The position numbers and the translations under genes were made by a program. From positions 558,001-622,000 of the forward strand of contig NZ_QKNX01000002.1 of assembly GCF_005239135.1 (NCBI RefSeq): a stretch of 64,000 bases of DNA, in the 5' to 3' direction. Below the pieces are notes generated by a model. It saw only the letters and a list, made by a program, of their open reading frames with translations, ran no database searches and was not told the DNA's origin. The DNA comes from Natronomonas salsuginis. Lineage in GTDB: Archaea > Halobacteriota > Halobacteria > Halobacteriales > Haloarculaceae. Below, in pieces: positions 28,016-32,767 of the stretch; within the stretch, counting starts at the first letter, position 1; every line of letters begins with the position of its first letter.

Positions 28016-29371
28016 TCAGTCGTCCTCGGTCAACTGCTCGATGATGCCCGCCGGCATCCGCTCGCGCATCTCCTCGGGGATCGCATCGGGCGTCGTCGGT
28101 GGAGTTGCAGGGTCCGGATCGAAGGCGGGGCCGAAGAGCCGCAACGCCGTGTGGATCGTCGACCAGTCGTCCTTTTCGGCTGCGTCGCGGAGGCTCTGGG
28201 TGGGGGCCGACAGGAGCTGTCCCACGAGGGCGTCGGCCATCGATTCGAGGATCTCGCGCTCGGCCTCCGAGACGCCGTCGTCCGATTCGCCCTCTAACCG
28301 TGCGATCGCGGTCCGGAGCTCGCGGGCTTTGATCCGTTCGGCTCCCTCGTACATCGCGCCGATGACCTGGTCGGCGCGCTTTCGTTTGTACTGACTCAGG
28401 AGGTGCTTGAGCTCGTCGTCGATCATCGATTCGACGGCTTCGGCGGCCGCCTGCCGCTTCAGCTTCGTCTCGTCGGTGACGGTTTCGATCGTATCGAGGT
28501 CGTACACCGAGACGTGCGGCAGTGACTCCGCGTCGGGCTCGACGTCCCTCGGCTGGGCGATGTCGATGACGCACGTCTCCCCGGCGGTTTCGAGCGCGTC
28601 CGCCTCGACGACGTGCTCGGGGCTTGCGGTCGCCGAGACGACGATGTCGGCCTCGGCAGCGGCGACAGGGAGTGCGTCCAGCCTGACCGTCGAGGTTTCC
28701 GTGTCGAGCTGCCTTGCGAGATATTCGGCGCTCGACCGGGTCCGGTTCGCGATGATGAGTCTGGTGACCGGCTCATCGAGTACCTTCGCCGCGAGCGTCG
28801 CCATCTCCCCAGCTCCGACGACCAGCGCGGTCGCCTCGTCCAGCCCGTGTCGTGACTCGGCGAACCGTACCGCCGCCGAGCCGAGTGAGAGCGTCCCCTC
28901 GTTGATCGCCGTCTCGCTCCGCGCTCGCTCGCCGACGTGGAGCGCTTTCAACAGCGCGTCGTCCAGCGTCGGCCCAATCGCCCCGAGGCCGCGCGCGGTC
29001 TCGTAGGCGTCGCGGATCTGTCCGATGATCTGGTCTTCGCCCAACACGAGCGACTCGAGGCCGCAAGCGACCGACATGAGGTGTCTGAGGCTCGCCTCGT
29101 GATCGAGCGTTCTGGCGACGGTCGGATCGACGCCGTCGAGATACGTCGCGAGCGCGTCCCGTCCGGCCGCCGCGGTCTCGGCGACGACGTACGCCTCCGC
29201 GCGGTTGCACGTCTGGAGGACGAACGCCTCCGTAACGCCGGCTTGATCGTACAGCGCGCGGACGGCTTCCGCCGTCGAGTCGGCGGCGACGGTTTCGATC
29301 TGTTCGACACGCGCGTCGCTGTGTGAAACGCTAACGCCGGTAACGACTTCGGTTTCTGGTCCCTTGGTCAC
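28016..29371 (-). CDS. hemA: Glutamyl-tRNA reductase
   Basis: 451 residues. It reduces glutamyl-tRNA(Glu) to glutamate-1-semialdehyde with NADPH, the entry to tetrapyrroles. Catalytic Cys55 lies in VLQTCNRAEAY; the NADPH site VVGAGEMA is near residue 187 and NRTRSSAEYLA follows; the C-terminal helical dimerisation domain is present with an additional Pro/Asp-rich tail. Its ATG overlaps the sirC stop (ATGA), so translation is coupled. It is the last gene of the heme operon interrupted upstream by the TnpB element. Confidence 0.96.
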   Translation of the reverse strand: MTKGPETEVVTGVSVSHSDARVEQIETVAADSTAEAVRALYDQAGVTEAFVLQTCNRAEAYVVAETAAAGRDALATYLDGVDPTVARTLDHEASLRHLMSVACGLESLVLGEDQIIGQIRDAYETARGLGAIGPTLDDALLKALHVGERARSETAINEGTLSLGSAAVRFAESRHGLDEATALVVGAGEMATLAAKVLDEPVTRLIIANRTRSSAEYLARQLDTETSTVRLDALPVAAAEADIVVSATASPEHVVEADALETAGETCVIDIAQPRDVEPDAESLPHVSVYDLDTIETVTDETKLKRQAAAEAVESMIDDELKHLLSQYKRKRADQVIGAMYEGAERIKARELRTAIARLEGESDDGVSEAEREILESMADALVGQLLSAPTQSLRDAAEKDDWSTIHTALRLFGPAFDPDPATPPTTPDAIPEEMRERMPAGIIEQLTEDD

Positions 29372-30015
29372 GACTTCTCACCCAACGCCGAATCGACGAC
29401 GGCGTCTACTATCTGCCGAGGGTTAGACGCACCCGTACCTAAATCCTTCCAAACCCGTGACGATTGCACGACCGTCCGGACGGCGCGGCGGCGGCGGGCG
29501 GGATCGACGCCGCGGGCTTTCAACTCCTCGCGCACGTCCGCCGTTAGCTCGGCGAGTTCGCCCGCACCGTCGATTTCGCTCTGGATGCGCCGTCGAAGCT
29601 CCTTCGCGAGCGCGGGCGACGAACCGCCCGTCGAGATGGCCACGGACACGTCGCCGTCCCGCACCGTCGCCGGGACGACGACGCCGCCGGGGCCGCGCTC
29701 CTCGGAGTGATCGGCGCGGTTTATCAACGCTCCGCGCTCGCGAGCCTCGCGCTCGACGGCCGCGTTCACCGACGCGTCGTCCGTGGCGGCGACGGCGAGC
29801 ACCGGCTCGGTTCGCTCGAACCACGCCGCGACGCCGTCGTCGTCGGGTGCCGCGCGCACGAGGTCCGCGTCGCCGTAGTCGTCCGCGGCGAACTCGGGGC
29901 TCACGACGACGACCGCGGCCTCGCGCGCGAACCGTCTGGCCTTCCGCGCGCCAACCGGCCCGCCGCCGAACACCAACACCGTCTCGTCCGTGAAGTCGTG
30001 GTACAGCGGAATCAT
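29368..30015 (-). CDS. sirC: Precorrin-2 dehydrogenase (siroheme synthase family)
   Basis: 215 residues. It oxidises precorrin-2 to sirohydrochlorin with NAD+. The N-terminal Rossmann site FGGGPVGARKA (about 16-26) and the A-T-D-D-A-S-V-N segment with a candidate catalytic Asp are present; ISTGGSSPALAKELRRRI is the family's phosphate/substrate region. In the alternative heme route its product, after iron insertion, feeds the siroheme decarboxylase encoded upstream. Its start codon lies 7 bases from the end of the TnpB element, so its original promoter is now 1.5 kb away. Confidence 0.9.
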   Translation of the reverse strand: MIPLYHDFTDETVLVFGGGPVGARKARRFAREAAVVVVSPEFAADDYGDADLVRAAPDDDGVAAWFERTEPVLAVAATDDASVNAAVEREARERGALINRADHSEERGPGGVVVPATVRDGDVSVAISTGGSSPALAKELRRRIQSEIDGAGELAELTADVREELKARGVDPARRRRAVRTVVQSSRVWKDLGTGASNPRQIVDAVVDSALGEKS

Positions 30016-30082
30016 CTTTCACCAAGCAGGAAATCCCGCCGCTTGCGGCGGGGAGGACTGCGACACTTGACTGTCTGTCCAA

Positions 30083-30220
30083 CTACTGCGTTCTGTCGGT
30101 GTCGAGGCACTCTGCCCCTTCCAACAGCAATCCTTTCCACGTGTAGCCCCGCTCGTCTTTCAGTTCGGTTAGCCATTCGTGCTGTTCTTCGCTGACCTGT
30201 AGACGCACATCTTTGGGCAT
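30083..30220 (-). CDS. 45-residue TnpB-linked small protein
   Basis: Starts M-P-K-D-V-R-L-Q-V-S-E-E-Q-H-E-W and has a strand-helix-helix look (VRLQV, EEQHEWLTELKD, TWKGLLLEGAE), compatible with a minimal ribbon-helix-helix protein. I recall similar short genes divergent to tnpB in many haloarchaeal IS1341-type elements. A CATAAAAC element near 30246 lies 26-28 bases ahead of the ATG, so it is probably leaderless. It points toward sirC and hemA. Function unknown; a regulator of the element is plausible. Confidence 0.72.
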   Translation of the reverse strand: MPKDVRLQVSEEQHEWLTELKDERGYTWKGLLLEGAECLDTDRTQ

Positions 30221-30247
30221 GCATATTTGTTATCTTCTGTGCGTTTT

Positions 30248-31546
30248 ATGTGCTTCGGTTCCGTAGGAGTAGGGGGGACCGCCACCGCCACGAAAACGCT
30301 CGAAGCCACGCTCACGCCACCGACGGCGCACAAAGAGCGTCGGCTTCAGCGGACCGTGGCGACGTACCGCCACGCTCTCTCGGAGTCCTTCGACTCCGGC
30401 GCGGACACGCAGTCGGCGGTCAACGATGTCGTCACCGGCTACAACCTCACGTCCTACGCGAAGGACGCGCTCAAGAACTACATCCCGCAACTCCACCGGA
30501 CATACAACGCCGAGGAGTTGGACGAGGACCACCCCGTTCGATTCACGAACCGAGGGTGGCGTCTCGACCACTCCGAGGATCGAGAACACGAGTTCTGTTG
30601 GCGCGTTCCGCAGGCCGGGCGTGGCAACGCGTTCTGGATTCCGCTCCGCATCAACCCCGCACAACGCGAGTTGTGGGACGACCTGCGCGACGGCGGCGTG
30701 TCGGTCGGCGAGTTCCGACTGACCGAGAACCGCACCAACTGGGTACTCCACGTCACCGTTGAGTACGAGGTCGCGGAGCCAGAGGAGTCGAACGACCTGA
30801 CGCCGGTCGGCCTCGACATCGGTGAATCCAAACTCCTGACGGGCTGTGCCTGTCGGGACGGTACTCCGACCCAACCGATGCTGTTCGACGGCGGACGCGC
30901 CCGGCACCTCCGCAAAGAGATGTTCACGACCCTCCGCCGTCTCCAACAGCGAGACGCTGAGTGGCGCGTGGACGAACGATTCGACCAGAACGCTTTGACG
31001 GATATCGTGGAGAAGGCGTCCCGAGATGCCGTTGAGTACGCTCGGTCCTTCGAGAATCCGGTTATCGTCCTCGAAGATTTGTCGTACATCCGTGAACATC
31101 TCAACTACGGCAAGCGGCTGAACCGACGCCTCCACAACTGGGCGTTCGCGCGCCTCACCGGACGCATCGAAGATAAGGCTCGTGACGCTGGGATTCCGGT
31201 GCGATTCGTGAATCCGGCGTACACCAGTCAGACGTGTCACGCCTGCGGCCACCTCGGTTCGCGGTCGTCGCAAGCCGAGTTCCGATGCACGAACGCGGAG
31301 TGTTGGGTTTCGGAGTACCAAGCAGACATCAACGCGGCGGCCAACATCGCCGGCCACCTCAACCCGCGGGGAGAGAGCCTGTCGCTGAAACCGACGGGCG
31401 ATGACTCGCCTCGTGACGGGAGTGCTTGTGAGAGCACCACAGGACACCGCGAGCAGAGTCGGCAATCCCGACAGACGACGCTCGGGGACTTCAGTTCTGA
31501 AACCTCCGACGACGAGGCTTCCCTTGTAGGAAGCCCCGCCCTCTAG
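30248..31546 (+). CDS. tnpB: TnpB RNA-guided endonuclease
   Basis: 432 residues from the ATG at 30248. The RuvC-type catalytic triad is complete: D190 (VGLDIGES), E276 (IVLEDLSY) and D360 (QADINAA). A zinc ribbon has C330, C333, C347 and C352. The N-terminal half holds the RNA/DNA-binding region (TATKTLEATLTPP, then RRLQRTVATYRHAL). TnpB cuts DNA next to a short target-adjacent motif using an RNA made from the element's own right end, which favours retention of the element. The stop codon lies inside the last hairpin of the element, so the gene and its guide RNA overlap. The coding region looks intact. Confidence 0.93.
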   Translation: MCFGSVGVGGTATATKTLEATLTPPTAHKERRLQRTVATYRHALSESFDSGADTQSAVNDVVTGYNLTSYAKDALKNYIPQLHRTYNAEELDEDHPVRFTNRGWRLDHSEDREHEFCWRVPQAGRGNAFWIPLRINPAQRELWDDLRDGGVSVGEFRLTENRTNWVLHVTVEYEVAEPEESNDLTPVGLDIGESKLLTGCACRDGTPTQPMLFDGGRARHLRKEMFTTLRRLQQRDAEWRVDERFDQNALTDIVEKASRDAVEYARSFENPVIVLEDLSYIREHLNYGKRLNRRLHNWAFARLTGRIEDKARDAGIPVRFVNPAYTSQTCHACGHLGSRSSQAEFRCTNAECWVSEYQADINAAANIAGHLNPRGESLSLKPTGDDSPRDGSACESTTGHREQSRQSRQTTLGDFSSETSDDEASLVGSPAL

Positions 31547-31564
31547 CGCGGGCGAGGATGTCAC
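31500..31564 (+). ncRNA. Structured 3' end of the TnpB guide RNA (omega/reRNA)
   Basis: Two hairpins: GGCTTCC-cttgta-GGAAGCC (31516-31535) and CCGC...GCGG (about 31536-31551) followed by GCGAGGATGTCAC. In Halobacterium salinarum, IS1341-type genes produce sense-overlapping RNAs of this kind, and in TnpB systems they carry the guide just past the right end. The 5' end of the RNA is not determinable here. The guide would begin near 31565 and match the 3' end of ahbAB. Confidence 0.55.
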
Positions 31565-32622
31565 TCGTGCGTGTTGGCGTCGGCTCGCTCGTCGAGTCGG
31601 ATCCCCGTCTTCTTCAGAATCCGCGTCGAGAACAGCGAGTCCCAGTCGTCATCGCCGACGTCCCAGTGCTCGTCCATCTTCGCTTTGACCCGCCCGATCC
31701 GTCGGTCGCTCTCGGCCTCGCTCCGACCGTGCGTCATCGCGAAGAAGTTGTACGGCCAGACGCCCTCGTGTCGGGGGCGCTCGTAGCAGTGTGTGACGAA
31801 CTCCAAGCCGGCGACTTCGGGGCCGACGGCCCCGAGGAGGTCGTCGGGAACGTTCCAGACGGTCATCCCGTTCTCTGTGTAGCCGAGCGCGTAATGGTTC
31901 GGGACGACGCCGACGCGACGGACCTTGCCCTCCGCGTCGAACCGCTTTATCATTTCGACGACCCACTCGGTTTCGACGCCGAGCGCCTCGGCCACGTCGG
32001 CGTACGGCGTTTCGGTCACCGGCAGGCCACCCTGTATCTCGACGACGAGATCGCGCTCCTCGGGCGTCAGCGTGCCGCGGTCGGCCGGTTCGACTTCGGG
32101 GCCGAGTTCGGAGCAGTCGACGTCGCCCTCGGGAATCGGCCCGTCGAGCAGGAACTTCGCCTCGACGCGGAACTCCTGTCGTTTCGGCAGGTTGTACGTC
32201 TCCTGGCCGGTTTCGGCTTCGATCTCTTCCAGGACGCGATCGATGGCCCCGGCCTCGGCGACCGAGACGACGAACCACATGTTGAGATAGGGGTGTTCGC
32301 GCTCGTAGTTGTGGGCGACCTCGCGGTGGGCGTTCACCGCCTCCGCGATCTCCTCGAAGCGGTCCTCGGGCGCGTGCATGGCGACGAGCGTCGCGGCACC
32401 GCCGATCTCGGCGGCGTTTATCAGCGCGCCGAAGCGCGTCAGCACGCCGTCGTCGTCGAGGGTTTGGATCCGTCCGAGCAGTTCGTTCGCGGTGATCTCC
32501 ACGCCGCGCGCTCGAAGGGCCGCCGCGGCCGGTTCGAAGGGGTGCTCGACGACCGGAAAGCCTCCCTGATAGGCGTTGATGATCGCGCGGTCGATGCGGT
32601 CCAACCGGGCGGGTTCGCTCAT
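31561..32622 (-). CDS. ahbAB: Siroheme decarboxylase, fused AhbA-AhbB type
   Basis: 353 residues from the ATG at 32622; the frame runs on upstream but homology starts at M-S-E-P-A-R-L. It decarboxylates siroheme to didecarboxysiroheme in the archaeal alternative heme pathway. Two Lrp/AsnC-like halves are visible, each with an HTH-like segment (LDRIDRAIINAYQGGFPV and LTPEERDLVVEIQGGLPV); the C-terminal half has VGVVPNHYALGY and WPYNFFAMTHGRS typical of AhbB. Its stop codon is at the insertion point of the TnpB element, which separates it from sirC and hemA. Confidence 0.9.
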   Translation of the reverse strand: MSEPARLDRIDRAIINAYQGGFPVVEHPFEPAAAALRARGVEITANELLGRIQTLDDDGVLTRFGALINAAEIGGAATLVAMHAPEDRFEEIAEAVNAHREVAHNYEREHPYLNMWFVVSVAEAGAIDRVLEEIEAETGQETYNLPKRQEFRVEAKFLLDGPIPEGDVDCSELGPEVEPADRGTLTPEERDLVVEIQGGLPVTETPYADVAEALGVETEWVVEMIKRFDAEGKVRRVGVVPNHYALGYTENGMTVWNVPDDLLGAVGPEVAGLEFVTHCYERPRHEGVWPYNFFAMTHGRSEAESDRRIGRVKAKMDEHWDVGDDDWDSLFSTRILKKTGIRLDERADANTHE

Positions 32623-32767
32623 TGTCGACAAAAGGGGCGTCTCCGAAATAAGCCCCTCGCTCGGTCCCACGCGGACGAACATCTTCGAGTCGCCGCCGAG
32701 AGACACTGCGCGTGACGCTCCGCCTGACGAAGCTATTTACCGGTAGCAACCCTAAACGAGTTCGAAG

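What the first reader, a model, noticed from the sequence alone, without database searches (positions are those of the whole stretch)
30015..31564. TnpB element inserted exactly at the ahbAB stop codon, splitting a heme operon; empty site can be rebuilt
Left flank TTTCAC and right-end TCAC allow precise joining. The product reads ahbAB-GAG-TGA, then AAG, then the sirC ATG: a 3-base spacer, as expected for coupled genes. The element therefore landed between two translationally linked genes without losing any coding base, and it uses the TCA of the ahbAB stop codon.
Basis: partly seen in the sequence, partly recalled or inferred. Interest (0 to 1): 0.68.

Follow-up and report, generated by a model that had tools for sequence, protein, structure and literature searches.

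The report
TnpB element at a stop-start overlap
A small jumping gene with an RNA-guided nuclease has landed exactly on the four-base stop/start overlap (ATGA) between two heme genes, and its right end carries the letters that rebuild the lost stop codon; several relatives sit on the same kind of overlap in other operons, so such junctions look like safe landing places for this family.

Summary
The element is real: a 1,549-bp, tnpA-less IS200/IS605 (IS1341-type) TnpB element at 30016-31564, inside a minus-strand ahbAB-sirC-hemA operon that is uninterrupted in all 29 relatives checked. "TCACC" at the left belongs to the element, because other insertions share it. Sister-genome empty sites for several independent insertions show that the family inserts 3' of TCAT/CCAT, starts with CTT and ends with GTCAC. 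The published ISH12 element has the same ends.

The reconstructed empty junction is therefore GA-ATGA-TTCC: ahbAB's stop and sirC's start overlapped by 4 nt, with no AAG spacer. The element separated them. sirC keeps its ATG, and the right end (TCAC, read GTGA) gives ahbAB GAG-TGA instead of GAA-TGA, so the protein is unchanged.

This recurs. 7-8 of 36 TCAT insertions lie on ATGA overlaps (metY|metX, oppC|oppD, a cobD-like pair), against about 1% of random TCAT sites. Relative to tolerated sites the excess is about fourfold and weakly significant.

The TCAT elements also carry a conserved, apparently undescribed 44-46-aa CopG-like gene (dN/dS about 0.13), transcribed toward the downstream host gene. 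No tnpA was found in this genome.

The parts
31561..32706 (-). ahbAB (fused siroheme decarboxylase subunits); its present stop TGA (31561-31563) lies in the element's right end
   Evidence: NCBIfam AhbA and AhbB models; ORF list
30012..30015 (+). target TCAT = reverse complement of ATGA, the ancestral ahbAB stop / sirC start overlap; stays on the left of the element
   Evidence: Family empty sites TCAT|flank
30016..31564 (+). IS200/IS605 (IS1341-type) TnpB-only element, 1,549 bp, CTTTCACC...GAGGATGTCAC
   Evidence: Alignment limits and end conservation in copies at unrelated sites; same ends as published ISH12
30035..30052 (.). left subterminal hairpin CCCGCCGC-TT-GCGGCGGG
   Evidence: Read directly; hairpin at the same place in related copies
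30083..30220 (-). conserved 45-aa ORF, predicted CopG/Arc-like ribbon-helix-helix protein, transcribed toward sirC
   Evidence: Found in 35 of 36 TCAT-type copies; median dN/dS 0.13; AlphaFold2 pLDDT 89; best Foldseek hits are CopG, TM 0.78-0.84, E 0.8-1.3
30243..30255 (-). A+T-rich TATA-like box about 24-35 nt upstream of the small ORF (candidate outward promoter)
   Evidence: A+T-rich at this distance in 38 related copies; inference
30248..31546 (+). tnpB, 432 codons, RuvC D/E/D and zinc finger intact
31535..31552 (.). right subterminal hairpin (expected 3' part of the omega-RNA scaffold)
   Evidence: Read directly; varies in arms with pairing kept in other copies
31561..31564 (+). right terminal TCAC; read on the minus strand as GTGA it gives ahbAB ...GAG TGA
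31565..31584 (+). predicted omega-RNA guide (flank = antisense of the last ahbAB codons); would match the empty allele next to TCAT
   Evidence: Position as in ISDra2 (PMC8612924). In this genome the sequence occurs only next to TCAC, no TCAT-flanked match with 2 or fewer mismatches. Function inferred
29368..30015 (-). sirC-like precorrin-2 dehydrogenase, start ATG at 30015-30013
   Evidence: NCBIfam cysG_Nterm; start conserved in relatives
28016..29371 (-). hemA, glutamyl-tRNA reductase; overlaps sirC by 4 nt (GTGA)
   Evidence: NCBIfam hemA

Best explanation
A tnpA-less IS200/IS605 element, mobilised by a TnpA supplied in trans, inserted 3' of a TCAT tetranucleotide that was the reverse complement of the ATGA stop/start overlap of ahbAB and sirC. 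The ends used by this family (target TCAT kept on the left, element terminus TCAC on the right) split an ATGA overlap without damage: the downstream gene keeps ATGA with its start codon, and the upstream gene reads into GTGA, so its last codon changes NNA to NNG and its stop is restored. The AhbAB protein is unchanged (GAA to GAG). What is lost is the 4-nt coupling. sirC-hemA expression then depends on readthrough or on the left-end promoter that drives the small CopG-like gene toward sirC (inferred). TnpB with an omega-RNA whose guide is 31565 onward would cut the empty allele (TCAT + guide) but not the occupied one (TCAC + guide), keeping the insertion in a multi-copy chromosome (inferred from ISDra2). 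Shown: element ends, target, family empty sites, recurrence at ATGA overlaps, conservation of the small gene. Inferred: transcription, nuclease activity, role of the small protein, and the exact empty sequence at this locus.
For: Empty sites for independent insertions of the family are TCAT or CCAT|flank with no CTT (L119, L076, L132, L087, L137, L090). The metY|metX insertion of a same-genus genome (L045) has a 97%-identical gapless empty site GGTCAT|AGCGCG in another genome of that genus (L255). TCAT junctions are conserved for L046, L076, L077, L084. ISH12 in phiH and ChaoS9, as annotated, begins CTTGATT and ends GAGGATGTCAC after CTAT. Of 36 TCAT insertions, 8 were classed as ATGA overlaps (7 if the doubtful L240 is dropped) against 12 of 1,481 control TCAT sites. 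Upstream genes read NNG-TGA at the element in all 8; 7 of 8 changes are synonymous. Flanking genes identified: MetY/MetX, oligopeptide permease/ATPase, CobD-like. The reconstruction matches the relatives with an ATGA overlap here (L021, L024, L025, L039).
Against: No genome of the same species without the element was available; the nearest relatives (about 80-82% protein identity) have 1-nt spacers (TAG-c-ATG) as well as overlaps, so the exact pre-insertion sequence here is inferred. Element identity at the left terminal bases varies among copies. ATGA overlaps are also sites where insertion is tolerated: against tolerated sites only, the excess is modest (7 of 35, window excluded, vs 7 of 122; Fisher p 0.016; dropping L240 too, p 0.037). 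No transcript or protein data were seen.
Confidence: 0.87

Rival explanations
1. One reading: the element was inserted after TTTCAC; the ancestor had ahbAB-GAG-TGA, AAG, ATG with a 3-nt spacer.
For: TCAC occurs at both ends of the interval (30019-30022 and 31561-31564), so a direct-repeat join is possible.
Against: CTTTCACC is present after TCAT in other insertions at unrelated sites (L073, L076). Empty sites of the family lack it. Close copies have CTTTCTAC, CTTGCGG or CTTAATT at the same place.
Confidence: 0.05
2. The target is CATCTT (CTT is host sequence), giving an ancestral ...GAAAGATGA junction (AhbAB ending ...THER).
For: CATCTT precedes nearly every copy, and L021 has GAGAGATGATTCC at this junction.
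Against: Joins that include CTT are 3 nt too long for L119, L076, L132, L087, L137 and L090 against their empty relatives; ISH12 as annotated begins with CTT.
Confidence: 0.06
3. The recurrence at ATGA overlaps is purely survivorship: insertion is random among TCATs, and those inside genes are lost.
For: Start-codon-like sites are also enriched (A+B 21 of 36 vs 168 of 1,481). Against tolerated sites only, the ATGA excess is about fourfold with p 0.016-0.037.
Against: Some excess remains after restricting to tolerated sites, but the gene calls are heuristic.
Confidence: 0.65
4. The TnpB copy has been domesticated by the host as a regulator of the heme operon (its guide is antisense to ahbAB).
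For: The predicted guide is complementary to the 3' end of ahbAB mRNA (direct reading); single copy of this subfamily in the genome; no tnpA found.
Against: RuvC residues are intact, unlike nuclease-dead TnpB-derived repressors; no relative has the element here, so there is no sign of long retention.
Confidence: 0.05

Closest known systems
ISH12 (= ISH1.8), IS605-type element of Halobacterium salinarum and phages phiH and ChaoS9
   Same: Termini CTT...GAGGATGTCAC, near-terminal palindromes, no target duplication, tnpB region about 70% identical in DNA
   Different: Carries tnpA; target CTAT; lacks the small CopG-like gene
IS1341-type (TnpB-only) haloarchaeal elements, e.g. ISNph5-22 and ISHwa (PMC3119063)
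   Same: TnpB-only, target oligonucleotide outside the element, palindromes near both ends
   Different: Neither recurrence at stop/start overlaps nor the small gene turned up in the passages read
ISDra2 TnpB (Deinococcus)
   Same: Target sequence left of the element doubles as TAM (TTGAT); guide comes from right flank (PMC8612924)
   Different: Carries tnpA; activity demonstrated there, only inferred here
CopG/Arc ribbon-helix-helix repressors
   Same: Size and strand-helix-helix topology; TM 0.78-0.84 to CopG
   Different: No significant sequence match and Foldseek E-values not significant

Membership tests
IS200/IS605, IS1341-type (tnpB-only) | TnpB with RuvC D/E/D and zinc finger | tested here: met
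   guided_TnpB 128.7 bits over cut-off 100; motifs aligned with solved chains
IS200/IS605, IS1341-type (tnpB-only) | No target duplication, insertion 3' of a fixed short target | tested here: met
   Empty vs filled sites, target TCAT/CCAT
IS200/IS605, IS1341-type (tnpB-only) | Subterminal hairpins at both ends | tested here: met
   Direct reading and copies
IS200/IS605, autonomous | Y1 HUH transposase TnpA | tested here: not met
   None in the element, and no PF01797 match in the genome assembly; so non-autonomous
OMEGA (TnpB/omega-RNA) nuclease | RNA-guided cleavage of TAM + guide | not testable with these tools
   Anatomy fits; no activity data
CopG/RHH transcription regulators (45-aa ORF) | Ribbon-helix-helix fold | tested here: inconclusive
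   AlphaFold2 extended N-terminus + 2 helices, pLDDT 89; CopG top hits TM 0.78-0.84 but E 0.8-1.3
CopG/RHH transcription regulators (45-aa ORF) | Sequence-specific DNA binding as dimer | not testable with these tools
   none
ATGA overlapping gene pair (ancestral ahbAB/sirC) | Stop and start share ATGA | tested here: inconclusive
   Reconstructed from family rule; 6 of 29 relatives show ATGA or GTGA overlap here, closest ones do not

The most novel reading that the evidence does not exclude
The TCAT-type haloarchaeal TnpB elements actively favour ATGA stop/start overlaps of operons rather than merely surviving there, their termini TCAT/TCAC having been shaped so that both genes stay intact. The co-conserved CopG-like protein and its outward promoter manage expression of tnpB and of the separated downstream gene: an operon-compatible insertion strategy.
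Probability: 0.2. Interest if true: 0.72.

Novelty: new variant of a known kind. Interest (0 to 1): 0.52.

Why it matters
It shows how a transposon's fixed target and fixed right terminus can fit the genetic punctuation of operons: the element brings its own stop codon and leaves the start codon in place. Huber et al. (PMC6728339) found translation of downstream genes at such overlaps strictly coupled in Haloferax volcanii, so these insertions are natural experiments on uncoupling. The change TCAT to TCAC also removes the expected TAM from the occupied site. The conserved small CopG-like gene is a possible missing regulator of TnpB elements.

Tried and rejected
Other copies in this genome are too distant (at most 37% protein identity) to help. 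Rfam gave only sub-threshold matches. Pfam, NCBIfam, PHROGs, PADLOC and PDB sequence searches gave nothing useful for the small protein. A strict start-codon test that required an upstream in-frame stop gave 8 of 37 vs 6%; it was replaced by the frame-composition test. L240 was classed as an ATGA overlap by that test, but its upstream ORF does not look like a real gene. Element copies with CCAT and CTAT targets were left out of the ATGA test because they cannot form ATGA.

Full report
What is there. Minus-strand genes ahbAB, sirC and hemA are interrupted between the first two by an element that carries tnpB on the plus strand. In all 29 related genomes examined, sirC follows ahbAB directly, with overlaps or mostly short gaps and nothing of element size between them. 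TnpB passes the NCBIfam cut-off, and its catalytic and zinc-binding residues align with solved relatives.

Right end. Unconstrained alignments of copies inserted at unrelated places mostly stop at or within a few bases of window position 31564, and nearly all end GAGGATGTCAC.

Left end. Copies at unrelated sites have CATCTT followed by a variable but element-specific stretch and then AGG and the hairpin. Two of them (L073 Halogeometricum pallidum, L076 Halorubrum amylolyticum) have exactly the window's CTTTCACCAAGCAGGAAA. To decide whether CTT is host or element I joined the flanks of 16 insertions and searched 392 genomes. Empty relatives of L119, L076, L132, L087, L137 and L090 lack the CTT: the real junction is TCAT or CCAT|flank. 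The published ISH12 element in phages phiH and ChaoS9 begins CTTGATT and ends GAGGATGTCAC. The element is therefore 30016-31564 and the target TCAT at 30012-30015.

The rebuilt junction. TCAT is ATGA on the minus strand. Removing 30016-31564 gives ACG CAC GAA TGA with ATG ATT CC starting inside it: a 4-nt stop/start overlap, as sirC and hemA still have (GTGA). With the element in place ahbAB reads GAG TGA, the last G and the stop coming from the element's terminal TCAC. AhbAB keeps the same sequence. sirC keeps ATG. The AAG before it is the element's own CTT. Relatives vary here: ATGA or GTGA overlaps in 6 of 29, short spacers in most others, including the nearest. The exact ancestral sequence is an inference from the family rule.

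Recurrence. With paired ends defined for 82 insertions (loci), targets were TCAT 36, CCAT 17, CTAT 19 and a few others. Eight TCAT insertions were classed as lying on an ATGA overlap between two long co-directional ORFs; one (L240) is doubtful. Among identified pairs are metY|metX (L045), oligopeptide permease|ATPase (L046) and a CobD-like gene with its neighbour (L084). In all eight the upstream gene now ends NNG-TGA in the element, synonymous in seven. Empty relatives confirm the TCAT junction for L045 (97% identical, gapless, same genus as the window's genome), L046, L076, L077 and L084. Control TCAT sites in the same flanks are ATGA overlaps in 12 of 1,481 cases. Against control sites that would not disrupt a gene, the figure is 7 of 122 versus 7 of 35 with the window left out (Fisher p 0.016), or 6 of 34 without L240 (p 0.037). 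I therefore regard tolerance as the main cause, with possible additional preference.

The small gene. In 35 of 36 TCAT copies and 9 of 17 CCAT copies, but in none of 19 CTAT copies, the left end holds a divergent ORF of about 45 codons, at 30083-30220 here. It is under purifying selection (median dN/dS 0.125, 167 pairs). It is annotated only as a hypothetical protein in plasmid pR1SE and has no family match. AlphaFold2 predicts an extended N-terminus and two helices (pLDDT 89); the best fold matches are CopG chains (TM 0.78-0.84, E about 1). An A+T-rich box lies 24-35 nt upstream in the aligned copies. Its transcription would run into sirC. I infer a DNA-binding regulator of the divergent tnpB promoter; this is not shown. 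No paper combining TnpB and this kind of protein as an element component was found in the library searched (by titles and abstracts).

Maintenance. By analogy with ISDra2 (PMC8612924) the guide would be 31565 onward. In this genome that sequence occurs only behind TCAC, never behind TCAT with 2 or fewer mismatches, so the occupied site should be spared and an empty copy cut. No Y1 transposase gene was found in the assembly, so the copy seems unable to move without help.

Verdict. An ordinary family of element, but the corrected anatomy explains why it could split a coupled heme gene pair without protein damage. The same fit recurs in other operons, and a conserved small gene travels with it.

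Noticed in passing
L088 and L137 left ends: Two Natrinema copies appear to carry an internal duplication in the left end that duplicates and disrupts the small ORF (elements 1.66-1.76 kb instead of about 1.56 kb).
   Followed up: no
G087:C13:197489-197711: A solo left end, 89% identical to window element positions 1-224 of the query, without tnpB: possibly a remnant or a PATE-like derivative.
   Followed up: no
L184 (Halorubrum lacusprofundi plasmid pR1SE): The plasmid pR1SE carries an 86.8% identical copy of the element with the small gene annotated as hypothetical (WP_176580075.1); its left terminus lacks the CTT seen in other copies.
   Followed up: partly
L096, L097, L079, L151: A sister subfamily ends in GTCAA instead of GTCAC and has different left flanks (TCATAGAGA in L096); its target rule was not worked out.
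   Followed up: no
window 30215-30255: The start codons of tnpB (30248) and the small ORF (30220) are 27 nt apart, and TATA-like stretches of each lie over the other's start, suggesting overlapping divergent promoters.
   Followed up: no
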